A stretch of DNA of 64,000 nt. Origin: Arthrobacter castelli DSM 16402. GTDB taxonomy: Bacteria > Actinomycetota > Actinomycetes > Actinomycetales > Micrococcaceae. Where the stretch lies: assembly GCF_000430705.1 (NCBI RefSeq), contig NZ_AUMN01000012.1, positions 89,657-153,656 of the forward strand, read 5' to 3'. Position numbers and translations under genes: made by a program. Shown piece after piece: positions 350 through 57,878 of the stretch (its first letter is position 1; each line of letters opens with the position of its first letter). The notes below the pieces were generated by a model, which saw nothing but the letters and a program-made list of their open reading frames with translations, ran no database searches and was not told the DNA's origin.

Positions 350-459
350 CATGTGGTGGTCAATCATGACCGAAAGATGACACCCACCAGGGCTTTGGTT
401 GATCAGTTCCAACCACACCGACGACGGCCGCCACTATGCAATCCAAAAGAGGAGCACCG

Positions 460-12224: not shown

Positions 12225-12593
12225 TCACACTGTCGCGGCGACCGGCTCACCAACAAGTTCGTCATTGAAGTCTTCGGTGTTGATCGCCTCGGCCGCGCCG
12301 GGATTCAGTCGACGGCTGACGCTTCTGGACGCCGAGAATTTCAACACCGGATAATCCTCGACGTCGGACTTGCCGAAGCGGACCTTATGCCCCTTGTGCA
12401 CCTGTCGATAGAAGCGGCCGAAACCGGTCAGGACCACAGCCTGATCGCCCGCCACCGTGTCGACGAGCTCGTCGAGGATCCCTTCATACACCGCGCTCAC
12501 CATTGCCGCCGATAACCCGGTCCGCGCCGAAACACCGGAGACGAACTGTTGTTTCGTGACTCGTTCACCTTCAGTCGTCGCTATGCTCATCAT
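12225..12593 (-). CDS. HU/IHF-family DNA-binding protein
   Basis: A 122-residue protein with the HU fold signature: N-terminal helices (KQQFVSGVSARTGLSAAM), then LTGFGRFYRQVHKGHKVRFGK in place of the usual GFGTF..R arm, then a strand LKFSAS. HU proteins bend DNA and assist recombination, replication and transcription. A 30-residue C-terminal tail beyond the usual 90 residues is unusual. AGGAGAG precedes two adjacent ATG codons (12593, 12590). It has its own AT-rich upstream region, so it may be expressed separately from the polymerase operon. Confidence 0.8.
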   Translation of the reverse strand: MMSIATTEGERVTKQQFVSGVSARTGLSAAMVSAVYEGILDELVDTVAGDQAVVLTGFGRFYRQVHKGHKVRFGKSDVEDYPVLKFSASRSVSRRLNPGAAEAINTEDFNDELVGEPVAATV

Positions 12594-13070: not shown

Positions 13071-14825
13071 TCAGGGCTGATACTCCGGTTGTGGCTCTTG
13101 TTCTGACGCCGCCGGTTGCGGTCTGGCCCGCGGCGTCCCGGAGGCACCATAGAATCCGGACCTTTCACGGGTTTGCCAGGTTTGATAGGCGGCAGCCGGA
13201 TCCATCGTGGCGTTGGCCATAAAATCATGCCAGTCTTCGCCATATTTCTGCCCCCACTGCCGGCTGAAATCCGGATACTTCTCGCGCATCGCCTCGATCG
13301 CGTCAACGTAGGCGTTCGAGTATGTCTGTTGCTGCTGCTCGTCCGTGAACCCGTCGGCGGTCATCGATGCCAGCATGGTCCGTGATTGGAACAGCCGGTC
13401 GGGAATCGCTCCGGGCAGGTCTTCACCGTCGAAATCCCGGGCCCGGGCGGAGTAACCGAGCATATAGCCGGCCAGGTCTTCGTTGAAGGCCTGCTCGTCG
13501 CCGTCGCTGATGGCCTGCGACATGGTCATCGTCATCGTCTCCGACATGGCCATCCGGTGGTGATCAGCACCCATGGATCCGCGCACCGTGAAAGCGCCGA
13601 GCACCTCGTCCTTGGTGTCAGGGTCTTTATAACGCGTGTGCTCGGTCTCATGGCCCAGATAATCCTCGAACTGGCCGTGCCAGACCTTCACCGTCGTGCC
13701 TGTGCCGTTCAAACGCTCATCACGGGGAGCGCACATGCGGTCGCGCCCGTGCGAGAGCCCCTCGGCTATCGTCTGCATGCGCGGATCTTCAGTGATCCGC
13801 TCACCTAGGACCACCCGTGAAGCCTCGGCCACCTCTTCACGGTTCAGGCCGTCGGCTTCAGCCTGCTGGTACAAGTGTTTGACCATGTTCTGGTAACTGT
13901 CGTTGATCTGCCCGGTGTCGGCGTCGGGTTCTCGCAGTTTCATAAATGCCTGCTCGGCCAGCGCCACCTCGGTCATCGCCGCCGAACGGGGCGTGTACAT
14001 CTCACGGTGGCCACGCTGGCGAAACCGCATATCGTCGAAGCGTTTCTGCCACTTGTTACCAACTTTTTCCCGCGGATCGACCTGCCGCTTTTCGGTTTTA
14101 CCCTCGGCGGACCGCTGCGCGTTCTGCCCGTCGATCCGCTCGTTTTTCCGGCCGGCCTCAAATTCAGCCCGGCCCATTTTCTTGTCCGCCTTGGCCTCGA
14201 CCCGCTCCTGTATTGCTTCGCCGACCGACTTGGCATATTCGCCGACCGCCGACCTGAAGGTGGGCGAAAGCATGTACATGGTCGCCATCATGGACGCCGC
14301 ACGCGTCACTGACGCCGCACTGACACCCTGCTGCAGCGGGCGCATGCACGAGGTCATCATCATCCGGGCATGGACGTCGTGCAGCGCACTGGTCTTCTGG
14401 TGCCGGTCATCGTCGTTGAACCCGGCGGCGAGAATGTTGGAGGCGCGCAGCGAATCCATGTACTGCGTGCCGGCGTCGGCAATGTTGGACCGCAGCAGTT
14501 TCAGCTCGTCGCGGTTGCTCAGATCATCACTGGCATTCATTTCTTCAACCCAATGTGCCCGGCCCTGCTGATACCGGTCCTTGCGGTCGCCGGCCCTGGT
14601 TGCGAAAAAGCCGCGCGCCTTCTCCCACTGCTGCTTCCAGCTATATCTTTGCCCTTGTTGTTGTTGTCGACCGGAACTGTGTTGACCGTGATCGTTCATG
14701 TTCGTCTCCTCCCATTCGGCATCGACCGGTTCTTCATGTGGATCGGGCTGCGCATACGAAGTGCCGCCGCTTGTACCGGTGTCATTGACCGGCAGATGCT
14801 TGCGTGCCCTGCTGTGATACGCCAT
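13071..14825 (-). CDS. Protein with HEXXH motif, coupled to the polymerase-like gene
   Basis: A 584-residue protein. GGGAGG lies 6 bases before the ATG at 14825, and the upstream polymerase-like gene stops at 14828-14830, so the two are translationally linked. The N-terminal 260 residues are basic, glutamine-rich and helical. The C-terminal half contains HETEH (392-396) in EDYLGHETEHTRYKD, matching the zinc-metallopeptidase HEXXH motif. No third zinc ligand is certain, so the motif may be coincidental. No signal peptide. A role as maturation protease or structural partner of the polymerase-like protein is speculation from gene order. Confidence 0.65.
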   Translation of the reverse strand: MAYHSRARKHLPVNDTGTSGGTSYAQPDPHEEPVDAEWEETNMNDHGQHSSGRQQQQGQRYSWKQQWEKARGFFATRAGDRKDRYQQGRAHWVEEMNASDDLSNRDELKLLRSNIADAGTQYMDSLRASNILAAGFNDDDRHQKTSALHDVHARMMMTSCMRPLQQGVSAASVTRAASMMATMYMLSPTFRSAVGEYAKSVGEAIQERVEAKADKKMGRAEFEAGRKNERIDGQNAQRSAEGKTEKRQVDPREKVGNKWQKRFDDMRFRQRGHREMYTPRSAAMTEVALAEQAFMKLREPDADTGQINDSYQNMVKHLYQQAEADGLNREEVAEASRVVLGERITEDPRMQTIAEGLSHGRDRMCAPRDERLNGTGTTVKVWHGQFEDYLGHETEHTRYKDPDTKDEVLGAFTVRGSMGADHHRMAMSETMTMTMSQAISDGDEQAFNEDLAGYMLGYSARARDFDGEDLPGAIPDRLFQSRTMLASMTADGFTDEQQQQTYSNAYVDAIEAMREKYPDFSRQWGQKYGEDWHDFMANATMDPAAAYQTWQTRERSGFYGASGTPRARPQPAASEQEPQPEYQP

Positions 14826-14827
14826 GA

Positions 14828-17800
14828 TCAACCTCCCATTTCATATTCGTCATCGGCCGTCGGTGTTGTAATGGCAATCGAGGGCGTATACGAAGGCGCA
14901 CCCGCGGTGGCCGCCACTGGCTGTGATCGCGGACCGCCGGCTGCCACCGCCTGTTTCGAACGACGCCCTTCGCCGCGGGCGCGGGCACTGACGTGGTCGC
15001 CGGCTATCACGTCACGCTTGATCACGGCATCAGCAATGACCGGTTCGGCGGGTTCGAATCCGGGCTCAGCCAACCGGTCGAGCTGCGTGCGGGTTTCGGT
15101 GCGGGCGGCGGCCGTGGCGATGGAGGCGAACTGTTCATTCCTGTCACCGTCGAAGAGATTCTCGTGGTTATCGGCGGCAGTGAGCAGGTCGCTGAAATCG
15201 CCGCCGTAGGCCATGCGGTCCATCAGCGAACCCTGCAGCGAGACGTCTTCTTCGAGGTTGCGCACCCGGCCGGTCTTTGGGTCGGTCAGCGCCGCCGCGA
15301 CCCGTTCGACGTATTCGGGGTTGACTGAGACGTTGAAGCCATCAGGGGCCTCATAGAAATCAATGAACTGGCCCGTCCATTCCTGTTCAGTGGCCGCCAC
15401 CGGTTCGCCGTCTTCAAAGACCGGCTTCCAACTGCCGGGCCCGTCGTGCTCGAGCTTGCGCCCGCGCCACAAGTCCCGCCCGGGGCCCTGGAGCATGTCA
15501 TACTTATGCCGCGCCTCACTGGCACTGTGCTTGGACTGCAGGATCGACTGCGTCACTGGATAAGTCACTTCCAGCACCGCCTTGAGATCCTTGTTGCCCA
15601 GCGCACGCACGGCCCGCTGACTGTATGAGCCGCCCAGGCCGGTGCCGTGGGCCTTGATCGCCGTGGCGAACATTGACGCTTCCTGGTCAGCCCGGGTCAT
15701 CCCCGGCTGACCATCTTCACCCAGGTACCGGGCATAGTCATCGAGCTTTCGTTGGTTGCCCTTCGCTCCGGTGTCGACGCAGACCGCCTCCACGCTGTCC
15801 AGGTGCGCCTGTTGGTCGTCGAAGCGCAACGCTGATCCGAACTCATTGCGCTGGGCATCGCGGTAGAAATCGGACAGTTGCCCGGTAATGTCCTCGTATC
15901 GTGCCCTGGTCACGTCGTCGGGCTCCGAATCCGCACCCATAACAGCAAGGTTCGTCTCACCGCTGAGGCTGTCGAGTTCGTCGCGCAGTTCACTGCTCTT
16001 TGACAGAGCGGCCTGAGTGTCCAGTGAGATCTGCATGGCAAACGGGTGCGTGCCGGCCTCGCTCTTGACTCCGGTGTCCAGCAGATTCGCCGGCACCGAG
16101 AGCTTGTCCATTGCCTCGGTCTTGGCGGCTTCGTGGTGCAGTCTGACCACTGCCACAGCGTCACCGTCGAAGTCGCCGTCGAAGCATTGATCCATCACCG
16201 GGTTGATAGCCACGCCGGTCAGTCGCTCGTCCACGGCCACCCGCATATAACGCATTCCCGCATCCCGCAGCACCGGGTCGCGCCAGATGAGGGCGTGATC
16301 GTCTTCGGCCAAACCCAGCTGCCCGGCCATCACCGGCGACAGCGCCACTTGGTCGATGTCCAGCCGCGGATCAGCAGTCCATACGGCCGTGGCCGAGTCG
16401 GCCAGCTTCGATGACATCAGGCCGGTCTTGAAAATGTTCTTCTTCTGGCTGAAGACCCGGTTTTGAAGATCACCGGTGATCGACTCGAACTTGCGCTGGG
16501 CCTGGACGGCCGCCTTGCCCATCCCGTCGGTCAATTCTTCGCGCTTGTCCTGGCTCAATGATCCGCCATCGAGCTTCTTCTGCATCGACCGGTATTTGCA
16601 GGCCTGCATATGCACATCCAGGTACCGGTTCGTGTAGTCGTGGGTCACTGTCGTGCCGTCCTCGAACTCCTGGCCTGAGCGCAGGTGCGACGAGAGCACC
16701 GGCATTTTCCATGATGAGTCCGTCACCGGCTCAGTCTGCTCACCGGTGGGGTAGGTCAGCGGGAACGGGATCTCCAAATCGCCGCCTTTGTCACCGATCA
16801 GTTCGCCGAACGATCGGCGCATTGCCGTGGTGTGCAGACCCCCGTTGGAGGTATGCACCAGGTCGGGCATGGCGAAGAGCCGGCGCTCGGGCCGGTCGTC
16901 GATTCCCTCGTGGCTCAGTCCCGTATGGTCTTCGTCGCGGCCGACGACCCGCAGGGTTCCGTCGGCTTCCATGTCCACACCGACGGTGAGCATGAATTCA
17001 CGCAGATTCGCTTCGGCCCCGCTGTTGTGGCCATAGAACTCGGCCATGATCGCCGGGCTGTCCTGGCTCTGCAGCGCCCAGGCCAGCTGCGAGGAGGCTT
17101 TCCGCCCCCGGCCGGCCGACACATCCTCGTCGTCATAGATTTTCGTCTTCTCGTCGACGGCCATATGGGTGACCATGAACCGCATCTGTCCCAGCGTGCC
17201 GGACTGAGCGGCATCGACCCCGGGTGCGTGCAAATCAGAAACCTCCCCGCCCAGCATCTCCCGTGCCGATCCCGCGTTGCGTCGCGAGATCAATGAGAAC
17301 GGGCTCATCACCACGTCCATGTCCGGGTTGTCCCGGAACCAGGCGACCTCCTGCTCCAGATCCTGCCGGCGGGCTTGTTCCGGTTCCATGTCCCGGTCGA
17401 CGACCAGGGAGACAACGCCCTTGTTGCCGTGCAGGTCCGAGAGCTTATCGCCGGCGACCAGGTCGCGCATTCCGCCGCCGGCACCGTGAATCCGGTTGCC
17501 CTCGGAGAATTCACGGCTGATCACGATCGGGTCGTCGGCGGTCCAGCCGCCGAACGTCATCATCGCCGTACCGGTGGGCGACGTCACCTTCGAGGACTGC
17601 ATCAGCGTCGAAGCCGTCATCTGCTGACGGTCGAACGGATCGAACTGCATCGTCTCGAGCTCAGGACGTGTCATCAACGGCGCGCGGGCACCGGTGACGG
17701 TCTCAGGGTCGCCGGGACTGATCCTGCCGTCGGTCGAGACCTGCGCGTCAGTGGTCAGGTAGCGCACGATGCCCTGATTGGTCGCCGACCCGGTCATCAC

Positions 17801-20461
17801 CGGGTCGAAATAGCCGGCCTGGGCGGCGATGCCGTTCTCGTCCACGCCGGTCAATACCGCCATATTCCGGCCGCCGGTGAGCCGCCACGCATCGAAATGG
17901 TTATCGTCGGCCGGATCAGCCTGGCCCGACTGGGCCCGATGTTCTGCGTAAACGGTTGAACCGGCCTTGATGTCGTTGGAGTAGCGCACCCGCCTGGCTT
18001 CGGTGGCCAGGGTCGATGCAATCCACGGGTCGAGCGCAAACCGGTTCGCGGCAGGCTCGTCGAAGTCGAAAGCGCCCTGTCCGTCATATTCGCGATGCTG
18101 CTCAATGAAGTCCACCGGGTGCTTAGTGCCGTACAACTTCGAATACACCCCGTTCAGCGAGGCACCTTCGCCGACCTCGCTGCGGCCCGAAACCAGGTCG
18201 GAGGCGACCTGATATTCGATCTGCTCAGTCATCATCTGTTCATAGCCGCGCAGCAGGGTGCGCTCTTCGACCGACCCGGTCTCACCCGGAACCTGGGCGG
18301 CGATTCGCGCCTCATAGCCGGGCACGATCAGGGCATTCTCGCCGCCGGCGAATTCAGTCACGATCTCACCGTGGTCACCGACGTCGAAAATCTGGCCGAT
18401 TTCGCCGCTGACTGTCGAAGCCGAGCCGTCGCGGCGCATCTTCTGCCCGCGCCACTTGATCACGCTCTGGTCGTCAATACGCACGTCGGCCTCTTCAACG
18501 GCGTTGCGCTGAAGGCTGGAGACCACCGTCTGCCCGGCGCGGCGGATGAAGTCACTGTCATGTTCATTGACGGGAACGGATGCTGACTCGTTGAAGCGCA
18601 CCAGTCGGTCCTTGAACCGCCCCGACTGGAATCCGGTGCCCATCATTTCGGACGGGGCGACGTTGATCCGGCGCAACGCCGATGCCAGATTGTCCAGGTT
18701 CGACCACTGTCCCGATGAGCTGGTCATATATTTGGCCACCCGCATCGGATCGAAACGCTGCTCGACCAGTTGTCCGTGTGCGTCAACCCGCGATTCGCAC
18801 TCGATGGTGCCGATAACCTCGTCGAGGACTTCATCGGCGTGGGCCCTTACCTTCTCCGGTGAGCTGCCGCCGTAGATCAGGTTGCCAAAGTCCGGTTCAA
18901 CACCGTCTTCGGCGGATAGTTCGCCGATCGCGCCGAGGCGCTGCTGGTACATCTCTTCAGTCGCACCCGGGCGCAACAGCTGCTCCCGGTTTCCGGCCAG
19001 CACGTCCCAGTAAGAGCGCTGGATCGCCGCAACTTCGGTGTCGGCCGAGAATTCAGGCTCAAGTGTTTCGGCACCGTCGAATTCAATATCGGGCCTCTGG
19101 CGTTCATAATCAGCGATCAGCCCTTCCACGTCGAGCGCGTTCGACAGGTTCGCCCGGGCGCTGTCCACTGCTCCGGCCAGATAGGCTTCGGCCGGTTCGG
19201 CGTCGACGAAGTATTCGGGCAGAGACCGGTCGGTGCCGTTGCGGCGGATGAAGACTTTTGAGCCATCGCGCGGTTGTTCGCCGGCGACCCGGTGATCAGC
19301 AATGGCGAACATCGAAATCTTGCCGACGTGATAGCTGTCCTCAATCTCGGACGGCTCCAGGGGCCCGTCGCGGCCGCGACGTGCCATTTCCGTGTGGGTG
19401 CTGCCCGTGGCACCGACGGCAACGCCGGGTTGATCCTTGCGCTGCAGCGGCCGGCCCTGACAGAAACGAAGCAGATCGACGGCCTCGGCGGGGCTCGGCG
19501 TATGTGTGGCGTACTTACCGCCGCCGATCTTGTGGTTGGTCGAATAGCGCATCACCATACCGTTGTCATAAATCCGGGCACCGGCATAGTCTTCGTGATC
19601 GCGGGTCTCGGTCAGGCGCACGTTCATACCGGTGCCGGAGACGCGGGCTTTGATCTGACCGGGGTTCTGATCCTTGAGCACCTCGTAGTCCAGACCCTGG
19701 CTCTGTAGTTCTTCGAGGATCGCCACAGACCGGCCCAACGCCGCCGGCGACATGAACCGGTTACGGTCGATCCGGCCGGTGCGCGGATCCCGGCCGCCGT
19801 CAATGACCCAGTTGCGCACCTGGTCATACTCTGCCGCGCTCATCTTGTCCATCAGTGCAGTCAGGCCCGAGGCGTCCTCGTCGCTCATCGCCCGGCCGGA
19901 CTCAACGGCCTTGCCATCACCATCGAGCTTCCACACCATCATCGGACCGCATTCGGGCGAGGACAGCCGGCCGGTCTGCCCGCCGACGGCACGTTCGATC
20001 GTCTCGTCGGGCACATAGCTCAATGCCGTGCCTGCATTTTTGATGGTCGCCCGCTCGGACCAGTCGGGGTCATAGGGACTGATCGGCAAGGCGGGGGAGG
20101 GGGAGGGGCGTGACCCGAAGCCGACCCGGCTCATGAAGGCCGCCTGCAGCCGCTGATAGTTCTCATTCGTCGGGCTGTGACCACCGTCGGCGTTGGCAAA
20201 GACCGGCTGATAGCCGGGCACCGATTCACCGATCGCGGCATCGACCGCCGTCAGCAGGTGTGAAACCTGCAGGTCCGGATTGGCCATGGTCAAACCTGGT
20301 GAAGACGCATCGATGGTGGACAGATGCTCATCAACACGGGCCCGAATCTCTTTTGCCTGCGAGATCGGGATCACCATTCCGGTCTGACTCCTGGCCTGCG
20401 AGATCGCATCATAATAAAGACCTTCATAAAAATACTTGCGCAGACCGTTTCTCTTTTGCAT
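14828..20461 (-). CDS. Single-chain two-barrel RNA polymerase-like protein
   Basis: A 1877-residue protein carrying the ordered core motifs of multisubunit RNA polymerase. Beta-like: ADDPIVIS (D976, D977), recalling EDAI; GDKLSDLHGNKG with K1006 and K1014, the same 8-residue spacing as the paired catalytic-site lysines of E. coli beta; then MDVVMSPFSLISRRNAG (around 1054), recalling VDIVLNPLGVPSRMNIG. Beta'-like: WRDPVL (R1394), recalling NRAPTL; DFDGD (D1430, D1432, D1434), the Mg-binding triad; and TYPVTQSILQSKH (Q1638, K1644), recalling the trigger-helix EPGTQLTMRTFH. About 950 N-terminal residues are unrecognised. Both barrels on one chain recall YonO of phage SPbeta and crAss-like phage polymerases. 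No sigma factor or alpha homologue is nearby. It heads a minus-strand operon inside the conjugation region, so transcription of element genes is the likely role (inferred). Confidence 0.85.
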   Translation of the reverse strand: MQKRNGLRKYFYEGLYYDAISQARSQTGMVIPISQAKEIRARVDEHLSTIDASSPGLTMANPDLQVSHLLTAVDAAIGESVPGYQPVFANADGGHSPTNENYQRLQAAFMSRVGFGSRPSPSPALPISPYDPDWSERATIKNAGTALSYVPDETIERAVGGQTGRLSSPECGPMMVWKLDGDGKAVESGRAMSDEDASGLTALMDKMSAAEYDQVRNWVIDGGRDPRTGRIDRNRFMSPAALGRSVAILEELQSQGLDYEVLKDQNPGQIKARVSGTGMNVRLTETRDHEDYAGARIYDNGMVMRYSTNHKIGGGKYATHTPSPAEAVDLLRFCQGRPLQRKDQPGVAVGATGSTHTEMARRGRDGPLEPSEIEDSYHVGKISMFAIADHRVAGEQPRDGSKVFIRRNGTDRSLPEYFVDAEPAEAYLAGAVDSARANLSNALDVEGLIADYERQRPDIEFDGAETLEPEFSADTEVAAIQRSYWDVLAGNREQLLRPGATEEMYQQRLGAIGELSAEDGVEPDFGNLIYGGSSPEKVRAHADEVLDEVIGTIECESRVDAHGQLVEQRFDPMRVAKYMTSSSGQWSNLDNLASALRRINVAPSEMMGTGFQSGRFKDRLVRFNESASVPVNEHDSDFIRRAGQTVVSSLQRNAVEEADVRIDDQSVIKWRGQKMRRDGSASTVSGEIGQIFDVGDHGEIVTEFAGGENALIVPGYEARIAAQVPGETGSVEERTLLRGYEQMMTEQIEYQVASDLVSGRSEVGEGASLNGVYSKLYGTKHPVDFIEQHREYDGQGAFDFDEPAANRFALDPWIASTLATEARRVRYSNDIKAGSTVYAEHRAQSGQADPADDNHFDAWRLTGGRNMAVLTGVDENGIAAQAGYFDPVMTGSATNQGIVRYLTTDAQVSTDGRISPGDPETVTGARAPLMTRPELETMQFDPFDRQQMTASTLMQSSKVTSPTGTAMMTFGGWTADDPIVISREFSEGNRIHGAGGGMRDLVAGDKLSDLHGNKGVVSLVVDRDMEPEQARRQDLEQEVAWFRDNPDMDVVMSPFSLISRRNAGSAREMLGGEVSDLHAPGVDAAQSGTLGQMRFMVTHMAVDEKTKIYDDEDVSAGRGRKASSQLAWALQSQDSPAIMAEFYGHNSGAEANLREFMLTVGVDMEADGTLRVVGRDEDHTGLSHEGIDDRPERRLFAMPDLVHTSNGGLHTTAMRRSFGELIGDKGGDLEIPFPLTYPTGEQTEPVTDSSWKMPVLSSHLRSGQEFEDGTTVTHDYTNRYLDVHMQACKYRSMQKKLDGGSLSQDKREELTDGMGKAAVQAQRKFESITGDLQNRVFSQKKNIFKTGLMSSKLADSATAVWTADPRLDIDQVALSPVMAGQLGLAEDDHALIWRDPVLRDAGMRYMRVAVDERLTGVAINPVMDQCFDGDFDGDAVAVVRLHHEAAKTEAMDKLSVPANLLDTGVKSEAGTHPFAMQISLDTQAALSKSSELRDELDSLSGETNLAVMGADSEPDDVTRARYEDITGQLSDFYRDAQRNEFGSALRFDDQQAHLDSVEAVCVDTGAKGNQRKLDDYARYLGEDGQPGMTRADQEASMFATAIKAHGTGLGGSYSQRAVRALGNKDLKAVLEVTYPVTQSILQSKHSASEARHKYDMLQGPGRDLWRGRKLEHDGPGSWKPVFEDGEPVAATEQEWTGQFIDFYEAPDGFNVSVNPEYVERVAAALTDPKTGRVRNLEEDVSLQGSLMDRMAYGGDFSDLLTAADNHENLFDGDRNEQFASIATAAARTETRTQLDRLAEPGFEPAEPVIADAVIKRDVIAGDHVSARARGEGRRSKQAVAAGGPRSQPVAATAGAPSYTPSIAITTPTADDEYEMGG

Positions 20462-20640
20462 GATTAATCGCCTCCGTTGGAGTGATCGGATACATAACTC
20501 TATATAGAGTATACCCGATTATTCGCAATGATGAGTCTAATAATCATCATTGGATCTCAAACATGAGTGCGAAGCCGCCGACGGCAACAGATTCTTCCCG
20601 GCAAAACCCGCCAACCGCCATTACCCAAGACCGGCGATCA
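20462..20640 (-). promoter_or_regulatory. AT-rich promoter island with 14-bp palindrome
   Basis: Upstream of the polymerase-like gene lies a perfect palindrome ACTCTATATAGAGT (20497-20510). On the minus strand TTGCGA and TATATA are separated by 16 bases, a possible sigma70-type promoter with the palindrome over its -10 region. A repressor site is plausible. Related CTC-TATA-GAG sequences occur upstream of other minus-strand units (27069-27082, 40562-40570). Confidence 0.55.
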
Positions 20641-20659
20641 TCCACGATGACCTGCAAGA

Positions 20660-20700
20660 ATGCCGGCGGTGCCCTGACGAAATCAGGGCACCGCCGGCAT
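20660..20700 (-). terminator. Perfect 18-bp hairpin terminator
   Basis: Arms 20660-20677 and 20683-20700 are perfectly complementary around CGAAA. It lies 25 bases past the stop of the coupling-protein gene, as expected for its terminator. No T-run on the minus strand. Confidence 0.7.
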
Positions 20701-20725
20701 CTGTCATCGGACGAACCAGCCGACC

Positions 20726-23700
20726 TCAGGCGTTATGCATCTCAAGAGCCATTGCCCGGTCGAAGGCACCGCCGGCCAGCGGCTCCCAGCTCGGCTGCGC
20801 GGCCAGAAAAAGGTAGAAATCCGCGTGGATCTTCATCGTCCCCACAGCCTGCAGGTCATTGGCGGTGATCTCTTCGTCCGCATATATCCGTGAATTTTCA
20901 TCCGCGGCCGAATCATTGAGCTTGCGTGCGGCATCGACATAAGCGGCAGTTCGCACCGGCGTGATATAGGTACGCGTCCCGTCGGCGCTGCGCAGTTCGT
21001 CGTCGCCGCCGACCGAGAAATGCTCCCGGTCCTGGTGCATGTCCCGCATCACCGACTTGTACGCCTCGGCAATCGGCCCGTCCAGATTCTTCACCTTCGC
21101 CGTGCCGTCGGGCTGGACCAGCATGTCCTGGCTGATCGTGGAGTCGGCATACACGAGCCGGGCCCGCTGTGCCGCCGTCGCCCCTCGTGTCTCGGCCTGA
21201 GCCTGGGCCTCGATATTCTCGACCACCTGGTCCTCATCGAAGATCATTGAGGCCCCGCCGTCGACATCCATTTCCGCCGGTGCGTGCGGGTCTCCGTTTT
21301 GTTCCGAGTTGACTTTCATCTGCACCAGCTCCATGACCTCGTCGGAATAGAGGTCCGGGTCCAGTCGGGCAATATCGACATCCTGGTATCCATAACTCTC
21401 CTGATACGTATGCTTCGCATCCGGTGCATGGATTGCCTGGCGCATGCGCTTATCAAGCATCTTGCTGAAATCGGGCTGATTCTTGCGCACATCGAAGTCC
21501 AGCGCCGACGACAGCGTCGGGATCGTCTGCAGCGAATACTCATGTCCGGGATGCTTAATAGTATTTTTGAGCAGCCGCCAGCTCATCGGCATCACCGTTT
21601 CATTGCGGTTCCACACCGGCGCATCGCCGGCGCGGAAGACGATCGAGTTGCGCGGCGGAATGAAGGCCATGTCGTTATAACTGATGACCGGCTCCTTCTC
21701 CGTGCTCATCGTGTATGAAACATGACCCTCGGCCGTGCCGCCAACGACCTTGTCCAGGTCCTGGCTGATCTGCTTGGAGTTGATGTGTGAAACATGAGTC
21801 GTACCCGACATCTTCTCCAGCGTCTCGATCATCGAATCGTCGGTCGACTTCAGATAGATGATATTCGAGACATTGCCCTGTACGATCCTATCCGTGTCTT
21901 CCCCGTAAACGTTCCTTAATTGTTGCAACGTCTGGAGAATGAGCGTGAATTGCTGTTCCTGACCCAAACCGACAGAAAGCATTGTTTCAAAATTCGCAAT
22001 GCCATGTCCGTCCGACTGCAGGTTGCCCAGTTCATCAAGCATGAACCGTGTCTTATACAACGGCTTCTGGTTGGACTTGGTCATGTACGACTTGTCGAAG
22101 TTCAGGTCCACCAGCTGCTTGACCAGAATCAGTACGAGTTTGGCGTATTTCATCAGGTGCGGGGGAGTGACCAGAAATACCGCCTTGGGCGCTTCACTGT
22201 ATCGGACCATCAATTGGGTGATGGCCCTGGCATCACCGGTGACTTTCTCCGGAACACCCGATTGGGACAGATCAAGGCGATCCTGCGGATACGTCGTATC
22301 TGCCGGCCTGTATGAAGTGATTGCACCATCGGCTTGGCCGTCAGCCTGATCATCAGCACGGACAGCCTTGAGTTCACGCAGCACCCCGTTTTTGACAATC
22401 TTCTGTCCCGTGACCGGCTCGATCACATAATGACGGCCGCCCAGCGAGACCTGGTAGTTCTTCTTGAAGTGGAAATAGAACGTGCGCATCAGCATCTTCG
22501 ACTGCGGGTTCACCAGTTCGAGCTTAAGCCAGGCCTGCTCGCCGGGAAATTTGCCCTTGAAGTAATATCTGGCCCAGCCTTCGCGGGAGACGATGTCGGA
22601 ATGATCGAAGTCTTCGCCGAGGGGCTCAGTGAACATCGAATCCCCGTAGGCCGACCATACGGCCTGCTGGCCGATCAGCCGGTTGCGCTTGAGGAAGTTG
22701 ATTGAAAACCGCACGCCCAGCCGGCGCGGAAACGACAATCCGCCCAGATCCGTGTTCTGGCTTGGCTTGCCACTGGTCAACGTTGAAATGGTCGGGTCGG
22801 TGAAAAAGCTCATTGCAGTAATGGCGATGCCATAGACCGACGCCAACATTTTCTCCGCTGAAGCCATGGCCCGCAGGGCATTGTTCGCGTTGCCGATCAG
22901 CGTACGCATGGTGTTGGTCGGCAGCGCGTCGGTGGCATTGAAGTAGAGAGTGAGCATGTCCTGCTCAGGCTGGCCTTCCCACAAAAACGCCTGCTTCGCC
23001 GCGGCAGCCCTTTCGATCTCCAGCCCTTCCTGGTCATCGTCGAATTCACCGGCCTTGGCGCGCTTGTCCAGCTCGGCCTCGGGATTCTTCAGCTTCTTCG
23101 AGGTTAGCTGCACGAACAATTGATAGCAGTTGTAGAGGGTGACCTGGCCCCACATGTCATCGAGGTTGCCCTCGAGCGTCTCCAGGTCCATCCCGGTCCT
23201 CGCGGCCTGCTCGCGCAGCTCTCGCTCTTCTTCCAGATAAAAGTCGATCAGGCCGTATGCGGCACGCTTGAAAGCATTATTGGCCGCGTTGGGCCAGACC
23301 GGATCCTCACTGCCGTCGACCGGGAAGAAGACATCGGCGATGTTTTCCACATACAGCGCGCATTTGGTCGAATCGCCTTCGCGTGCCGCGTCGGCGGCCA
23401 TGCCCAGGGGGTTGTAAATATCGGTCTTCATCGAGTTAATAAGATTGAACTGCACCGGCTCATACCCGCGAGTGACGAACGGAATGTAATTTTTCACCAG
23501 CAGTTCGCCCTTGGGGTCATTGATGACCATGTTCGACGGGTTGATCTCACGGCTCCACATGTCCAGCATGGGTTCGATGTAGCCCTGGCCTTTACCCGCG
23601 CGGGTGATGGCCAGCACCATCGTGTTCACCGGCGCGGTGTCGACGACGTAGGCACCGGCCGGACGCTGGACCTCATAATCGGGAAAATCCCAGTCATCGT

Positions 23701-24790
23701 TGATCAGGTCATTGACCCTTTTATACGTGCCGAGCCTGTCCCGGTCGCGACCATCGGCGTTATATGGAATGGCCGTGGTGTCGTATCTCTTGCGCAGGTC
23801 CTTGTCATCGGGCAGTTCCGACGCGGTAAACAGAGCCTCGCCGAATTCTTCGTCAATGATCGGTTTCCGGTCAGTGATCAGCTTGCCGTCTTCGTCGTCC
23901 AGGGCCTCGCCGGCGTAATAGAGAACATTGCCGTTGTCATCGAACGTGTCGGCCTCGGCGCGACGGGCGACATCGATCTTTTTCAGCCCTTTCTTCGCCA
24001 GCATCGCATGGCTGATCATTGACGAGGCCTGCACGCTCGAATGCGCGCCGGCGTCGGGAAACCAGTCGAACTTGCGCTGGATTTCTTCGGGCAGGGCAAT
24101 ATGCTGATCATTCTCGTGCTGGTTGATGTCGGCGGTGTCATTGGCCAGGTTGGCTTTCTTGACCCGCTTGCCCGACCATGCGCCCGTGATCGTGGCCACC
24201 AACAGCCCCAGGCCCAGGGACAGAAACAGCTTGAACCCGGAGACGGCACCCAGATACGGGCCCACTGTCATCGTCGACAGATCTGTCGGCGACGCCGCGA
24301 CGGCATCAGAGGCAGGGCCAGCCTGTGCTTGTTGTTTCGCCGCGGTGTACCAGCCGGGCACCGGCACCGCCTCCGCTGTGGGATAGCAGTCGCTGGCGGG
24401 CAGGCCCTGGTCACTGAGCTGGCGGAAGCATGGGGCCACATCGCCGCCGGTGACCGTCTGCATCGTCTTGGCGTAGTACGGACCCACGTCGCCGCCACCG
24501 CTGCCGCCGCTAGCGCCGCTGCCGAAACCGTCGATGATCGAGCCCGCCGCGACCAGGGCCATCGCGATCAGTGAGTACAGCACCCAGGCGGCGACCGTGA
24601 CGAATACGCCCGCGACAGCGGCCCCGACCCGGCCGGGCGTGGGCGAACGCAGTCGCTCGCGCTTGCTTCGATCCAGCTGCTGAGAACTGTGCACGTCCCG
24701 GTGTCCGAGTGTCTGTTCCGGGTCTCTGGCCGAGATCTTGTCCCAGCTGTCGGCCTTCGGTGCACGCGCCTTCCGTTTGCTACCGGCCAT
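20726..24790 (-). CDS. TraG/VirD4-type conjugative coupling protein
   Basis: A 1354-residue protein. Two membrane helices (about 55-80 and 181-203) enclose a glycine-rich, cysteine-containing external loop. The cytoplasmic ATPase has Walker A ITRAGKGQG (K400) followed by NDPKGE, and Walker B FMLDELGNL (D919), then LILQTLQQLRNVYGED, the TraG/VirD4 signature. Coupling proteins bring the relaxase-DNA complex to the mating channel and pump DNA. The 519 residues between Walker A and B are about twice the usual spacing, implying a large inserted domain. AGGAG precedes the ATG. A terminator upstream (24821-24877) suggests partly separate expression from the coiled-coil gene. Confidence 0.9.
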   Translation of the reverse strand: MAGSKRKARAPKADSWDKISARDPEQTLGHRDVHSSQQLDRSKRERLRSPTPGRVGAAVAGVFVTVAAWVLYSLIAMALVAAGSIIDGFGSGASGGSGGGDVGPYYAKTMQTVTGGDVAPCFRQLSDQGLPASDCYPTAEAVPVPGWYTAAKQQAQAGPASDAVAASPTDLSTMTVGPYLGAVSGFKLFLSLGLGLLVATITGAWSGKRVKKANLANDTADINQHENDQHIALPEEIQRKFDWFPDAGAHSSVQASSMISHAMLAKKGLKKIDVARRAEADTFDDNGNVLYYAGEALDDEDGKLITDRKPIIDEEFGEALFTASELPDDKDLRKRYDTTAIPYNADGRDRDRLGTYKRVNDLINDDWDFPDYEVQRPAGAYVVDTAPVNTMVLAITRAGKGQGYIEPMLDMWSREINPSNMVINDPKGELLVKNYIPFVTRGYEPVQFNLINSMKTDIYNPLGMAADAAREGDSTKCALYVENIADVFFPVDGSEDPVWPNAANNAFKRAAYGLIDFYLEEERELREQAARTGMDLETLEGNLDDMWGQVTLYNCYQLFVQLTSKKLKNPEAELDKRAKAGEFDDDQEGLEIERAAAAKQAFLWEGQPEQDMLTLYFNATDALPTNTMRTLIGNANNALRAMASAEKMLASVYGIAITAMSFFTDPTISTLTSGKPSQNTDLGGLSFPRRLGVRFSINFLKRNRLIGQQAVWSAYGDSMFTEPLGEDFDHSDIVSREGWARYYFKGKFPGEQAWLKLELVNPQSKMLMRTFYFHFKKNYQVSLGGRHYVIEPVTGQKIVKNGVLRELKAVRADDQADGQADGAITSYRPADTTYPQDRLDLSQSGVPEKVTGDARAITQLMVRYSEAPKAVFLVTPPHLMKYAKLVLILVKQLVDLNFDKSYMTKSNQKPLYKTRFMLDELGNLQSDGHGIANFETMLSVGLGQEQQFTLILQTLQQLRNVYGEDTDRIVQGNVSNIIYLKSTDDSMIETLEKMSGTTHVSHINSKQISQDLDKVVGGTAEGHVSYTMSTEKEPVISYNDMAFIPPRNSIVFRAGDAPVWNRNETVMPMSWRLLKNTIKHPGHEYSLQTIPTLSSALDFDVRKNQPDFSKMLDKRMRQAIHAPDAKHTYQESYGYQDVDIARLDPDLYSDEVMELVQMKVNSEQNGDPHAPAEMDVDGGASMIFDEDQVVENIEAQAQAETRGATAAQRARLVYADSTISQDMLVQPDGTAKVKNLDGPIAEAYKSVMRDMHQDREHFSVGGDDELRSADGTRTYITPVRTAAYVDAARKLNDSAADENSRIYADEEITANDLQAVGTMKIHADFYLFLAAQPSWEPLAGGAFDRAMALEMHNA

Positions 24791-24920: not shown

Positions 24921-27032
24921 TCAGAGAATCGCCCCGAGGATGAAGCCGGCACCGAGCATGACCAGCCCCAGGCAGACCAACAGCAGGCTCATCATCCAGT
25001 TCGACCGTGAATGAATCACATCTGACTGCTCCAGTGCTTCGGCCATCGAGCGCTTCTCGTCTGTGAGGTCATTGACCTGAGTCTCATATTGGGCCTTGAA
25101 CGAGGTCCCCATATTCTCGAGCTGGGCCAGCAGATCATCGACACGCCTGGCCTGTGAGTCCGCCTTCTCTTTCTCCAGGTTGAGACTGTGTTGCCACGCC
25201 TCGTCACGTTCGGCCATCTGCTCGGCGGCACGGTGACGCACACGCTCGAGCTCATCATCCATGTGCTGTTGCCGCTGTGTCTGGTCCGCCTTCACGTCCT
25301 CCAGGGCCTGCTGGTGGGACGTCTTGAGAGCATTCACCTGGTCTGTGCGCGCCTGATCTTCGGCCAGCGTCTCGGCGCGGCTGATGTCGTCTTTTCGGTG
25401 GTCGTCGATCACGCGCTCGATTTGGGCCGTCCAGGAGTCCATGAGCTCGCGCTCGGCATCCAGGTTGGCTTTGTGCTGGTCTTCAAGCAGTTCCATAATG
25501 CGCGTCTGGCCGACCTGCATCTTCGAAGCCGCATCCTTGCGCCGCACCCGCAGAATCTCCTGTCGGGTGTGCGAATACGTGTTTTCGGCCAGCGCCTCGA
25601 TCTCGGAGACGGCCTCGACCTGCTCACGCGCCACGCGCGCCTTGTTGCGCTCCTTATACTGCATCTCCGCCTGCGCCGCCGCCTGCTGGCCGACCGCCGC
25701 CGCCGTGGTGTTGAACTCCTCGAGAATTTCTTTATGCCGGGTGCGGACATCCTCGTCTTTTGTGGCCAGCCGCTGCTTATGATCGGCTTCGGCACGATCG
25801 TTGAGAGCCTTGTACCGGCTGCCTTCACGATCGGTGGCCACTTCACGGGTGACCTGCTCAACATGTAAGGCCATGAGTTTGATGTATTCGGTGCGCAGAG
25901 TCGACTCGCCCTGATCATGCAGCTGCTCCAATGAGGCGTTGGCCTGCCGGGTCAGCTGCCCGATCTGGTCACCGAGCCATTGGCTGGCACCGGCGGGCGT
26001 GGCAATCCGGACCACCGGTATGCCGATATTGAATACGGTGTTGAACTCGTCGAGCCGGATGTCGAGATCGAGGTCATCGCTGAGGAACCGGCGGGCGATC
26101 TGCTCACGGATCTGATCCTGGTCCGCCACCAGAACCTCATCGTCTAACTCTTCTTCGTCTTCATCCTCATCTTCATCATCGTCATACCCGTCGTCGTGAA
26201 CGTACGGATCTTCATCAAATGGAACCTCTTCGGCTCCGGGGCCGTCATCGACCGATGGTTCATCGAACGCCGCCGCATCCACGCTGTCCGCGCCTGCCGC
26301 CTCCGCTGCAACCCCGGCATCTTCGTCGACAACATCCGAGAAGACCGGCTGAACTTCACCATCATCGGAATCAACTGCGCCGGTGTCGGTTTCAGGCTCG
26401 TCATCAAACAGTGGATCACCGTCGTCGACGGACTGATCCGCCCCGGCGGCGGCAATCGGTTCGGTCTGCCGCTGTCCATCGCCTGCTGGACCCGCCTGCC
26501 CCGCCTCGCCGCTGTGTTCGGCCCAGGCTGCATCCCCGACAGCAGTCTTAAGATCCTCAGTGCCGGCACAAACCCGCAGAGCCTGGGCGAAATCCGCGGC
26601 GGCGACGATGGTGTAATCCAGTTGCCGGCTGCCATCTTGCCAGAGCACGGCCCAGGAGTATTCAGCTTCAGTCAGCAGGCGATATTCCTCCATCCGCGAC
26701 AGCGTGTCCTCAGTGGGGATGATGCCGAAGGTCTCGCCCGCCAGCATGTCAGTGGTGGCCACGGTCTGAATCTGATCGGATTCGATCAGCCCGATAATGG
26801 AGCCTTTGGCCTCATCGCGGTTATGACGCTTGCTCAATCCGCCGATCGCGTCGGCTTCAAGCGTCAGGATCACCCAGCCCGTTCCGCCGGGGAAGATGAA
26901 CGGCTCGTTGGTGCGCAGCAATTCGACTGCCGCGGCAGTGGCGGTTTCACGGACCACGGACGCCAGCAGCTCATCCGGCTTCTTCTTTCGTTCCTTCTTT
27001 TGGCTGTCTTTCGTGGCTGGCAGAATGCTCAT
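24921..27032 (-). CDS. Acidic coiled-coil protein with C-terminal membrane anchor
   Basis: A 703-residue protein in four parts. An N-terminal globular region (about 1-150) is followed by a very acidic linker (about 160-300, with runs such as DDDEDEDEDEEE). A long helical coiled coil comes next (about 370-665, rich in E, Q, R), and a single C-terminal membrane helix (MMSLLLVCLGLVMLGAGFI) ends the chain. The layout is that of a tail-anchored cytoplasmic scaffold. I know no named family for it. It sits between the coupling protein and a ClpA/B-like ATPase, so a role in organising the transfer apparatus at the membrane is plausible. GAAGGGA precedes the ATG. Confidence 0.7.
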   Translation of the reverse strand: MSILPATKDSQKKERKKKPDELLASVVRETATAAAVELLRTNEPFIFPGGTGWVILTLEADAIGGLSKRHNRDEAKGSIIGLIESDQIQTVATTDMLAGETFGIIPTEDTLSRMEEYRLLTEAEYSWAVLWQDGSRQLDYTIVAAADFAQALRVCAGTEDLKTAVGDAAWAEHSGEAGQAGPAGDGQRQTEPIAAAGADQSVDDGDPLFDDEPETDTGAVDSDDGEVQPVFSDVVDEDAGVAAEAAGADSVDAAAFDEPSVDDGPGAEEVPFDEDPYVHDDGYDDDEDEDEDEEELDDEVLVADQDQIREQIARRFLSDDLDLDIRLDEFNTVFNIGIPVVRIATPAGASQWLGDQIGQLTRQANASLEQLHDQGESTLRTEYIKLMALHVEQVTREVATDREGSRYKALNDRAEADHKQRLATKDEDVRTRHKEILEEFNTTAAAVGQQAAAQAEMQYKERNKARVAREQVEAVSEIEALAENTYSHTRQEILRVRRKDAASKMQVGQTRIMELLEDQHKANLDAERELMDSWTAQIERVIDDHRKDDISRAETLAEDQARTDQVNALKTSHQQALEDVKADQTQRQQHMDDELERVRHRAAEQMAERDEAWQHSLNLEKEKADSQARRVDDLLAQLENMGTSFKAQYETQVNDLTDEKRSMAEALEQSDVIHSRSNWMMSLLLVCLGLVMLGAGFILGAIL

Positions 27033-28933: not shown

Positions 28934-29095
28934 GCAGGCACACCCTTTCGACATGTATCAAATAGATTGAAAGATCAGTCAAACTCTATCATGTAAATGA
29001 TCTATCAAAGACAAAGAAATATCGTCCGACAAACCATTGGGGAAGGGTCTGTCAACATGGCGTCGACGACCTACGTGGGCCGCCGTGACGGCAGA
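28934..29095 (-). promoter_or_regulatory. AT-rich promoter island
   Basis: AT-rich region upstream of the second ClpA/B-like gene. It contains ATCAT-GTAA-ATGAT, a short inverted repeat (28989-29002), and repeated CTATCA units. It probably carries the promoter of that gene; no confident hexamers were found. Confidence 0.4.
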
Positions 29096-29774: not shown

Positions 29775-30332
29775 TCAGCCGAGCTGCGGCTCTTCCGACT
29801 CGGCGACCCGCTCGGTCTCAGCTTCAACGCCGGCAGTCTGCTCAGCGGCGGGTTCTGCCGTCGCCTGCTGCTCGGTCGCCCTGGCATCACGGGCTTCGCG
29901 CATGGATGAGAACTGGCCATCCATGGTCTGACTATCAATGTCGAAGTCGGACCCGCCCAGTGACTCGGAGTTGAGCACCAGACCGTTACCCTTGGCCGAG
30001 GGCATCACGTTGGCTTTGACCCCGTAGAGCTGTCCGATCTTTTCGCCATCGGCGTTGGCGATCGGCTCCACATTCGGGCCGGCCGCCTCGGCGATCTTGT
30101 CGAATTGGCCCGCCGAATAGGGGGCACCGTTGTTGTAGCGCGTCTGGCCGTCGTCACCGACAGTGCGGTTGGACGTCAGATGCAGGTTCGTCTCGCTCTT
30201 GCCCCGCTCGTCACGATGATCGACCTGGACGTCCAAGAAGCGCGTCTTGCCATCTTTGGTCACATTGTTGTCGAACGTCTTGGCCACGAGATTGACCCCG
30301 GTGAAAGCGCCTTTTCCTTTGAGCTGTGCCAT
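29775..30332 (-). CDS. Hypothetical protein, beta-rich N-terminus
   Basis: A 185-residue protein with AAGGAG upstream of its ATG. The first 130 residues suggest a beta-rich domain (GKGAFTGVNLVAKTF; TRFLDVQVDHRDE; TNLHLTSNRTV), and the last 40 are a low-complexity acidic tail. The acidic tail after a beta barrel-like domain recalls single-stranded DNA-binding proteins, but I cannot show an OB fold. It lies next to the relaxase with its own promoter region and terminator, so it is probably strongly and separately expressed. Confidence 0.6.
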   Translation of the reverse strand: MAQLKGKGAFTGVNLVAKTFDNNVTKDGKTRFLDVQVDHRDERGKSETNLHLTSNRTVGDDGQTRYNNGAPYSAGQFDKIAEAAGPNVEPIANADGEKIGQLYGVKANVMPSAKGNGLVLNSESLGGSDFDIDSQTMDGQFSSMREARDARATEQQATAEPAAEQTAGVEAETERVAESEEPQLG

Positions 30333-32856: not shown

Positions 32857-32916
32857 GACGGCCCTTCCTCTTTCGACAGCAGCCACGGACAATAGATCAC
32901 GCCTGGGCGGCCTGAC

Positions 32917-38542: not shown

Positions 38543-38613
38543 GGGCCCCGCCACCTCCTGTCTTATCGTTGATCTGTCCTATTTCGGGCCGATACCGACG
38601 CTGCCATCGGCCT

Positions 38614-41151: not shown

Positions 41152-41634
41152 ATGGAAGCACTGCCGTCAGATATATTTGTCCGTCGCCTGCGCACCGAGC
41201 GTGAACGCACGCAGGTCAGCCAGGCCGAACTGGCCCGGCGCATGGCCGAAGTGCTGGAGACGAACGTCGACCCGTCGGCGGTGACCCGGATCGAACAGAA
41301 ACTGCGGGCGGTCCGTCTCGACGAGGCCGTTGCCATGGCCTCTGTTCTCAACATCGACATAGCGGAGTTACTCAGCGACGACGCCCCCACCGACAATGAA
41401 CTACTCGTCCAGCAATACCTGGCCGATCTCGTCGTCGCCCGGCGGCAGTGGGAGAAGACCCGGCGCGAAATCGACCGGCTCACCCGGGCCATTGGCCATG
41501 TCAGCGGCGGCTATGAAATATACCGCCGATACGTCGAACAGGCTGACGCACTCGAGCCGGCATTGAAGGATGTTATCGATGCCCGGGTGGCCAAAGCCGA
41601 CCAAGACGACGATGCTACAGGCCCAGGCGCGTGA
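41152..41634 (+). CDS. XRE-family transcription regulator
   Basis: A 160-residue protein with a Cro/CI-type helix-turn-helix: FVRRLRTERERTQVSQAELA, then DPSAVTRIEQKLRAVRLDEA. A C-terminal helical domain (about 80-140) may mediate dimerisation. GAGGA precedes the ATG. It overlaps the convergent recombinase gene by 20 bases, so regulator and recombinase expression may interfere with each other. Likely a repressor of element functions. Confidence 0.8.
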   Translation: MEALPSDIFVRRLRTERERTQVSQAELARRMAEVLETNVDPSAVTRIEQKLRAVRLDEAVAMASVLNIDIAELLSDDAPTDNELLVQQYLADLVVARRQWEKTRREIDRLTRAIGHVSGGYEIYRRYVEQADALEPALKDVIDARVAKADQDDDATGPGA

Positions 41635-55181: not shown

Positions 55182-55184
55182 ATC

Positions 55185-57876: not shown

Positions 57877-57878
57877 GC

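What the first reader, a model, noticed from the sequence alone, without database searches (positions are those of the whole stretch)
14828..20461. Single-chain, two-barrel RNA polymerase encoded inside a conjugation operon
Seen: one 1877-residue protein holds, in order, D976-D977 (ADDPIVIS), K1006/K1014 (GDK...HGNKG, spacing 8 as in E. coli beta K1065/K1073), SPFSLISRRNAG, R1394 (WRDPVL) 36 residues before DFDGD (E. coli beta' R425 to D460 is 35), and TYPVTQSILQSKH like the trigger helix. Known: phage SPbeta YonO and crAss-like phage polymerases fuse both barrels in one chain, and I recall a divergent homologue on a corynebacterial mobile element. Inference: this conjugative element carries its own polymerase, perhaps for transfer genes or for priming and transcription in the recipient. 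The compact beta barrel (29 residues between the DD and first K motifs, against about 250 in E. coli) argues for a separate lineage.
Basis: partly seen in the sequence, partly recalled or inferred. Interest (0 to 1): 0.95.

Follow-up and report, generated by a model that had tools for sequence, protein, structure and literature searches.

The report
RNA polymerase built into conjugation machinery
A mobile element in an actinobacterium encodes, right beside its DNA-transfer genes, a one-piece RNA polymerase that keeps the active-site motifs of both halves of the cellular enzyme and is found together with the same kinds of transfer genes in two bacterial phyla; it is predicted to be an active enzyme and likely travels into the recipient cell with the transferred DNA to read it there, which has not been tested.

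The parts
14828..20461 (-). single-chain two-barrel RNA polymerase gene (1877 aa)
   Evidence: translation; Pfam; hhalign; models
18560..20461 (-). N-terminal region, residues 1-634, no family match
   Evidence: no PHROG match at E 0.01, Pfam best E 0.14; modelled, but no row covers it and it was not searched alone
17138..18559 (-). beta-like half, residues 635-1108, without room for the flap insertion
17531..17536 (-). D976-D977, counterpart of the beta ED motif (recalled)
   Evidence: D977 invariant in A3
17420..17446 (-). K1006-K1014 paired lysines (GDK...HGNK)
   Evidence: invariant in A3; GDKx5GNK in 276 of 283 homologues
15152..16966 (-). beta'-like half, residues 1166-1770
16160..16174 (-). 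DFDGD, residues 1430-1434
   Evidence: invariant in A3; D[FY]DGD in 283 of 283 homologues
15527..15565 (-). trigger-helix-like TYPVTQSILQSKH (1633-1645), at the end of a long modelled helix (1590-1642)
   Evidence: T, Q, K in 24 of 24, H in 20 of 24 of A3; aligns with cellular trigger helix at E 0.01; T[QH]xx[LM]xxK in 280 of 283; helix
14831..14857 (-). C-terminal acidic/hydrophobic tip (ADDEYEMGG)
   Evidence: tip patterns
20462..20725 (-). intergenic region upstream of the polymerase gene with a conserved TATgATCTATAnATAGTTATGT-like block before the start codon
   Evidence: alignment A4 of 12 sequences, the window and 11 loci
20726..24790 (-). VirD4/TraG-type coupling protein (CD1115-like), 1354 aa
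   Evidence: Pfam PF02534 2.4e-18; NCBIfam NF045973 2.6e-46, below its cut-off
24921..27032 (-). protein with long coiled-coil-like stretch and hydrophobic C-terminus (703 aa)
   Evidence: read from the sequence; conserved neighbour
27167..28954 (-). ClpA-like double AAA+ ATPase (595 aa)
   Evidence: Pfam AAA_2 6.5e-34; ClpA model 3.4e-66, below its cut-off
29775..30332 (-). conserved 185-aa protein downstream of the relaxase
30496..32892 (-). MobL relaxase (798 aa)
   Evidence: Pfam PF18555 1.4e-88
36227..38554 (-). lysozyme + CHAP protein (VirB1-like by recall)
   Evidence: Pfam
13071..14831 (-). 586-aa protein whose start overlaps the polymerase stop
   Evidence: found in 12 of 12 related loci
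12225..12593 (-). small DNA-binding protein, HU-like (HU by recall)
   Evidence: PHROG 379 'DNA binding protein' 3.9e-9; 12 of 12 related loci
41615..42811 (-). tyrosine integrase near the right end of the element
   Evidence: Pfam PF00589 2.2e-6

Best explanation
The gene encodes a single-chain RNA polymerase with the active-site motifs of both cellular barrels that belongs to the transfer module of a conjugative element; it is predicted to be catalytically active and is likely carried into the recipient with the relaxase-bound DNA strand, where it would transcribe the incoming element. Shown: beta-like and beta'-like sequence with its motifs, the company of coupling protein, ClpA-like ATPase and MobL relaxase, and independence from the replication genes. 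Predicted from models: the fold. Inferred and untested: activity, delivery by way of the C-terminal tip (with the ClpA-like ATPase unfolding the cargo for the coupling protein), and action in the recipient. The missing flap suggests that it does not use a sigma factor in the usual way.
For: Polymerase. Transfer module: MobL in 11 of 11 polymerase-bearing genomes, the window's and 10 of the 12. In 395 family genomes the polymerase is in 4 and MobL in 5, and the 4 are among the 5. Of 13 plasmids with the polymerase among 72,556, 12 are the 12 best-ranked of 124 records matching the staphylococcal coupling protein (E 6e-72 or better); the best of the other rows shown has E 2e-43, 64 rows are not shown, and the 13th polymerase plasmid is not among the 124. 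Dissociation from replication: in 10 elements polymerase, coupling protein and ClpA-like ATPase are together found in 9 and together missing in 1 (G527), while primase-helicase, DNA-polymerase-like protein and SNF2 helicase are found in 4, G527 included, within the stretches searched. Divergences of polymerase and coupling protein correlate at r 0.98 over 11 elements (pairs not independent, no unrelated control gene; the Lactococcus entry pools two plasmids). Delivery: a tip pattern ends 166 of 283 homologues, against shuffled-tail means of 3.7 of 120, 1.8 of 26, 0.9 of 17 and 3.8 of 120. In the stretches held of pHD75-1_1 and SAP020A the polymerase and the relaxase are the only ATG-started ORFs of 60 aa or more that match a strict form of it.
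Against: Tip patterns were written after seeing the tails. The strict one is met by 16 of 26 staphylococcal-type polymerases and by none of 271 ORFs on Lactococcus plasmids and phage SPbeta (overlapping stretches counted twice), so not by the Lactococcus polymerase either. The relaxases of the S. capitis and S. aureus plasmids end in a similar way (EYEIEL, HVIEL) but fail it; their polymerase tails were not extracted. In six actinobacterial elements 24 of 401 ORFs met a looser pattern: polymerase 6 of 6, MobL only 1 of 6 (the window's), coupling protein 3 of 6, an unrelated 361-aa protein 4 of 4. The Lactococcus plasmid pJM4A shows no coupling protein and the 5 Lactococcus plasmids no MobL's limit. 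G527 lacks one block of about 44 kb with other genes in it, and more genes further left. No VirB4 was found, so the channel is not standard. Whole-model TM-scores to single PDB chains are low (0.32 and 0.23 or less for the best-ranked rows). Nothing here separates donor from recipient action directly.
Confidence: 0.42

Rival explanations
1. Donor-side transcription: the polymerase is made in the donor and transcribes the element's own transfer operons from dedicated promoters, as phage polymerases transcribe late genes.
For: The gene goes with transfer genes, which this also predicts; precedent in jumbo-phage non-virion polymerases (PMC7824862, passages).
Against: No shared, oriented promoter found: the motif enriched between genes of six elements (EM log-likelihood 240 against 115 for one shuffled set) is operator-like, 72 sites in the sense of the gene and 56 against it. 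The polymerase gene has a conserved TATgAT block that looks like a host -10 box (consensus recalled). Absence of a found motif is weak evidence.
Confidence: 0.3
2. Primer synthesis: the polymerase is a transferred or donor-made primase that lays RNA primers for the complementary strand of the transferred DNA.
For: Transferred primases of conjugative plasmids are precedented (PMC5512222, passages); no Toprim or PrimPol domain was matched in the 20 window proteins.
Against: Some members carry a primase-helicase-type protein (phrog_864 1.8e-66), present or absent independently of the polymerase. A full cellular-type core is more than priming needs (inference).
Confidence: 0.15
3. Replication or maintenance polymerase of the element, unrelated to transfer.
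For: The window element also carries a DNA-polymerase-like protein (phrog_1252 3e-21) and a primase-helicase-type protein.
Against: Replication genes and polymerase dissociate both ways: replication genes without polymerase in G527, polymerase without them in 6 of 10 elements within the stretches searched.
Confidence: 0.05
4. Inactive or regulatory two-barrel protein that binds host RNA polymerase or nucleic acid.
For: No activity was tested; far in sequence from any assayed enzyme.
Against: D[FY]DGD in 283 of 283 and all three motifs in order in 272 of 283 homologues.
Confidence: 0.05

Closest known systems
[quoted passage not shown] earlier papers not held)
   Same: Two-barrel polymerase on mobile elements, beta barrel without the flap (SBHM) insertion. 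C. glutamicum, to which the NCgl1702 tag belongs (recalled), is the only one of 14 control genomes with MobL.
   Different: The NCgl1702 sequence was not reached by any search, so kinship is not tested. The passages seen say nothing of a transfer module, a C-terminal tip or Bacillota.
YonO of Bacillus phage SPbeta (PMC5467207, passages and Discussion read)
   Same: Both barrels in one chain; mobile element.
   Different: No BLASTP similarity; 839 aa against 1877; the paper reports no trigger-loop homology for YonO, here a trigger-helix-like motif is present.
Cellular RNA polymerase beta and beta'
   Same: Predicted folds of both halves, catalytic residues, profile match E 1.8e-39.
   Different: One chain, no flap, unmatched 634-residue N-terminus, 18% identity over the 456 aligned columns.
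Virion RNA polymerase of phage N4 (PMC5512222, passages)
   Same: Would work alike: delivered with the DNA to read it at once (inference).
   Different: The N4 enzyme is of the T7 type, another fold; that paper reports N4-type polymerases only in phages and prophages.

Membership tests
Two-barrel (double-psi beta-barrel) RNA polymerases | DxDGD metal-binding motif in the beta'-type barrel | tested here: met
   D[FY]DGD in 283 of 283 homologues; invariant in A3
Two-barrel (double-psi beta-barrel) RNA polymerases | Two conserved lysines in the beta-type barrel | tested here: met
   K1006 and K1014 invariant in A3; GDKx5GNK in 276 of 283
Two-barrel (double-psi beta-barrel) RNA polymerases | Fold of both subunits' cores | tested here: met
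Two-barrel (double-psi beta-barrel) RNA polymerases | The two barrels face each other | tested here: inconclusive
   Core fragment modelled in one piece with pTM 0.83; coordinates not available for measurement
[quoted passage not shown]
   29 residues between D977 and K1006; criterion from PMC7824862
[quoted passage not shown]
   Relaxase, coupling protein, integrase
[quoted passage not shown]
   Sequence not reached by any search
YonO-like polymerases | Detectable sequence similarity to YonO | tested here: not met
   BLASTP best E 6.6; profile comparison with YonO relatives not made
YonO-like polymerases | No trigger-loop homology | tested here: inconclusive
   T[QH]xx[LM]xxK in 280 of 283, but alignment with the cellular trigger helix only E 0.01; YonO statement
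Conjugative element | Relaxase and coupling protein | tested here: met
Conjugative element | VirB4-type ATPase | tested here: not met
   PF03135 in 0 of 7 genomes; PF12846 over cut-off in 1 of 7, the window's own, on another contig. A divergent VirB4 could be missed
Substrates of a type IV secretion system | C-terminal signal shared with the relaxase | tested here: inconclusive
   strict pattern: relaxase of 2 of 4 staphylococcal plasmids; looser pattern: 1 of 6 actinobacterial MobL
Substrates of a type IV secretion system | Translocation into a recipient | not testable with these tools
   needs an experiment

The most novel reading that the evidence does not exclude
Conjugation in this lineage ships its own transcription machine: a two-barrel RNA polymerase is exported with the relaxase through the coupling protein, unfolded by a ClpA-like ATPase, and reads the incoming element in the recipient, the plasmid counterpart of a virion RNA polymerase, in Actinomycetota and Bacillota.
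Probability: 0.38. Interest if true: 0.96.

Novelty: new variant of a known kind. Interest (0 to 1): 0.84.

Why it matters
Early gene expression in a recipient of conjugation is described as the work of host RNA polymerase, in part from single-stranded promoters (Frpo; PMC11541004 passages). A polymerase tied to the transfer module would be a second solution and could free the element from host sigma factors, which might help a broad host range (inference). It also offers a one-chain relative of the cellular enzyme with a switch-2-like stretch and a trigger-helix-like motif, useful for asking which parts of RNA polymerase are needed for what. The claim is directly testable by gene removal and with purified protein.

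Tried and rejected
YonO membership: no BLASTP similarity. Phage origin: tblastn against 50,697 phage records gave 1 weak match, to a phage-encoded beta subunit (E 7e-4); PHROGs gave one family at E 0.005. The 50 rows of the first VIA listing are Rpb1/beta'-type chains and those of the second beta/Rpb2-type chains; other folds are not excluded by that.

Dedicated promoters: word enrichment in the window alone was barely above shuffles; with more loci an operator-like motif emerged without clear orientation (193 sites in 47 kb between genes and 213 in about 429 kb of genes, score above 9). Attachment-site repeats: longest direct repeat between the left and right end stretches 14 bp; chance level not computed. 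VirB4: see membership test. Genome survey with profile A1 over 396 genomes of the phylum: 41 matched, but all except the window's own scored E 9e-6 or worse over the beta lysine motif in ORFs of about 800-1400 aa, which I read as host rpoB, so 1 of 396 carries the family.

Literature: the ten searches (held open-licence papers only; judged by titles and starts of abstracts) listed no paper on an RNA polymerase gene in a conjugation operon; the only mention met was one phrase in PMC7824862. Iyer 2003, Iyer and Aravind 2012, Ruprich-Robert 2010, Aravind 2012 and Ramsay 2016 are not held; what they say of NCgl1702 is not seen. Whether the staphylococcal plasmids belong to the pWBG4 family was not resolved (passages).

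Counts and rows dropped: homologue searches list the best 120 of 541 and 120 of 681; the unlisted ones may include cellular polymerases. One search lists 67 of 67. The 283 proteins leave out P0165-P0188 (24 of the 67), which are cellular-type fused polymerases or unclear, and include P0002, a copy of the window's own protein. The fused polymerases of A6 (15 of those 24) were themselves found with a family member as query. Tail patterns were tried in several forms.

Full report
What is there. The finding's ORF is real and lies on the minus strand, 14828-20461 (1877 aa). Pfam finds an Rpb2 domain-6 stretch and an Rpb1 domain-2 stretch in the right order. Residues 1-634 alone match nothing in PHROGs at E 0.01 and at best E 0.14 in Pfam.

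The trigger helix is less sure. In 24 diverse sequences T1637, Q1638 and K1644 are invariant, L1641 is in 23 and H1645 in 20. Aligned alone against the fused cellular polymerases, the stretch falls on their trigger helix (GEPxTQLxMRTFH) as best placement, but only at E 0.01, probability 4%. In the model it lies at the end of one long helix, 1590-1642. A bridge helix was not established.

Which lineage? YonO shows no BLASTP similarity, and the YonO paper stresses the absence of trigger-loop homology there. The 29 residues between D977 and K1006 leave no room for the flap. [quoted passage not shown] The window's protein therefore fits the NCGL1702-like kind, but NCgl1702 itself was not compared and no tree was made.

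Where is it found? Two searches gave 541 and 681 hits at E 0.001, of which the best 120 each were seen, mostly named hypothetical proteins of Arthrobacter, Streptomyces, Kribbella, Amycolatopsis, Actinomadura, Rhodococcus, Gordonia, Microbacterium and others. A staphylococcal query gave 67, of which I count 43 (P0122-P0164) as the family. In the plasmid collection it is in 13 of 72,556 records: Staphylococcus 5, Lactococcus 5, Streptomyces, Gordonia and Rhodococcus 1 each. In the phage collection it is not seen (1 weak match of 50,697 records, to a phage beta subunit). It is an accessory gene: 4 of 395 genomes of the window's family, with one further weak match (E 2.4e-5) outside the catalytic core, and 1 of 396 of the phylum. 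The family is that of Pseudarthrobacter, because G783 of the family search and G795, the genome of locus L008, show the polymerase at identical coordinates; this is an inference.

The company it keeps. In the window the order on the minus strand is lysozyme/CHAP, MobL, 185-aa protein, ClpA-like double AAA+ ATPase, coiled-coil-like protein, VirD4-type coupling protein, polymerase, 586-aa protein, 112-aa protein, HU-like protein, with further ORFs between lysozyme and MobL. Matches to all genes from ClpA to HU are found around the polymerase in 12 of 12 related actinobacterial loci; the Gordonia and Rhodococcus plasmids show ClpA, coupling protein and polymerase and weaker matches to the coiled-coil-like and 586-aa proteins, but no match to the HU-like one (annotations). 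The S. epidermidis plasmid pHD75-1_1 has MobL (E 5.9e-25), a Clp-type ATPase, coupling protein and polymerase in the same order, with other genes between. MobL is in 11 of 11 polymerase-bearing genomes examined (the window's and 10 of the 12), once each, same strand, about 10-15 kb upstream. In 395 family genomes the polymerase is in 4 and MobL in 5, the 4 among the 5.

Plasmids give a second view. With the S. epidermidis coupling protein as query, the 12 best-ranked of 124 records are 12 of the 13 polymerase plasmids (E 6e-72 or better). The best of the other 48 rows shown has E 2e-43; 64 rows are not shown, but the missing polymerase plasmid (pJM4A) cannot be among them, since all four Lactococcus records of the tally are in the top 12. 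No tree of coupling proteins was made. With its MobL as query, 16 records match, among them all 8 polymerase plasmids that are not Lactococcus. Of the Lactococcus plasmids two were looked at: pJM4A (Clp-type ATPase, VirB11-like protein, topoisomerase, no coupling protein annotated) and part of pLLUC147A (coupling protein, Clp-type ATPase, VirB11-like protein).

Transfer, not replication. In ten elements compared by tblastn, polymerase, coupling protein and ClpA-like ATPase are together found in 9 and together missing in 1. That one, G527, keeps integrase, MobL, lysozyme and the replication genes and lacks everything between the counterparts of window positions about -14100 and 29775, about 44 kb with other genes in it; it also lacks some genes further left. 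The replication genes (primase-helicase-type protein, 1088-aa DNA-polymerase-like protein, SNF2 helicase) are found in 4 of 10, G527 included; for the others the stretches searched were 42-80 kb. Divergences of polymerase, coupling protein and ClpA-like ATPase run in parallel (r 0.97-0.99, 55 non-independent pairs, 11 elements, no unrelated control gene).

The C-terminal tip. The chain ends in a variable tail and then a short acidic/hydrophobic tip (window ADDEYEMGG; staphylococcal type KDVEMEMS, GFELEM, DIQMEM). A pattern for it is met by 72 of 120, 23 of 26, 14 of 17 and 57 of 120 homologues, against means of 3.7, 1.8, 0.9 and 3.8 when the last 50 residues are shuffled; homologues are related, so this overstates independence. 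A stricter pattern is met by 16 of 26 staphylococcal-type polymerases, and in the stretches held of pHD75-1_1 and SAP020A only by the polymerase and the MobL relaxase (KDIELDI, NKDIELEL) among ORFs of 60 aa or more (51, 32 and 42 ORFs in three loci). It is met by none of 271 ORFs on Lactococcus plasmids (their polymerase included) and phage SPbeta, and by none of 70 and 68 ORFs of pAYP1020 and of an S. aureus plasmid, whose relaxases end in EYEIEL and HVIEL; the polymerase genes of these two lay outside the stretches. In six actinobacterial elements a looser pattern is met by 24 of 401 ORFs: polymerase 6 of 6, MobL 1 of 6 (the window's GDMSMGT), coupling protein 3 of 6, a 361-aa protein 4 of 4. 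Since relaxases are the classical cargo of coupling proteins (established knowledge; also PMC5512222), a shared tip would suggest shared export; it could instead be a docking or unfoldase tag.

How it most likely works. I commit to delivery: the coupling protein and ClpA-like ATPase hand the unfolded polymerase, like the relaxase, to the recipient, where it transcribes the incoming strand. Shown: gene company, joint presence and absence, motifs, tip. Inferred: activity, export, site of action. The main rival is donor-side transcription of transfer genes. I looked for dedicated promoters. The polymerase gene has a strongly conserved promoter-like block in 12 sequences. Between the genes of six elements there is an enriched CGACTCATC/TTCGACTGATCT-like motif, but it lies in both orientations (72 against 56) and reads as a regulator's operator. 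This neither proves nor excludes a dedicated promoter.

Novelty. Two-barrel polymerases on mobile elements are a known kind, mentioned in print. What this evidence adds is membership in a transfer module across two phyla, close sequence kinship to the cellular core and a tip shared in part with a relaxase. I rate it a new variant of a known kind, with a possibly much larger claim behind it.

Noticed in passing
window 1-42811 and L018, L019: No VirB4-type ATPase found for the element although it has relaxase and coupling protein; PF12846 hits of the host genome lie on other contigs (C41, C33). The ClpA-like ATPases may stand in for it.
   Followed up: partly
intergenic regions of window and of G789, G790, G792, G796, G798 stretches (L058-L077): Operator-like motif CGACTCATC / TTCGACTGATCT, often in tandem or inverted copies, upstream of many genes; regulator unknown.
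   Followed up: partly
window 2276-4201 (+), 436-2145 (+), L018:19050 to window 279 (+): A second ClpA-like double AAA+ ATPase, a protein with a DTSGS stretch that looks VWA-like (recalled motif) and a further protein with a GEPGIGKS P-loop, in a row.
   Followed up: no
L019:17199-19946 (+): SNF2-type helicase with an internal LAGLIDADG stretch (residues 448-506), probably an intein or homing endonuclease insert.
   Followed up: no
L019:12445-15711 (+): 1088-aa protein without a Pfam match but with a PHROG DNA polymerase match (3e-21).
   Followed up: partly
G527:C4 (L083-L085): Related element without the polymerase/coupling/ClpA block that keeps MobL, integrase and replication genes: a natural mobilizable-type derivative or an ancestral form.
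   Followed up: partly
L012 (G797:C1:133905-139501): Polymerase gene of Arthrobacter sp. Hiyo8 matches in three pieces over ORFs of 504 and 1453 aa; sequencing error or decay not decided.
   Followed up: no
plasmids CP052942, CP007602, CP150762: Typed non-mobilizable by MOB-suite in PLSDB although each encodes a MobL-type relaxase and a coupling protein.
   Followed up: partly
PDB 8h2n_A and BFVD A0A8S5SD80_1: A solved 'tape tail measure protein' aligns with the DFDGD region (E 0.0013) and a predicted phage 'minor tail protein' resembles the model (TM 0.37): phage two-barrel polymerases may hide under tail names.
   Followed up: no
window 49025-51286 (+) and 54087-60812 (+): Heavy-metal P-type ATPase and genes of a NADH dehydrogenase (nuo-like) operon beyond the integrase, presumably host chromosome; no attachment repeats recognised.
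   Followed up: no
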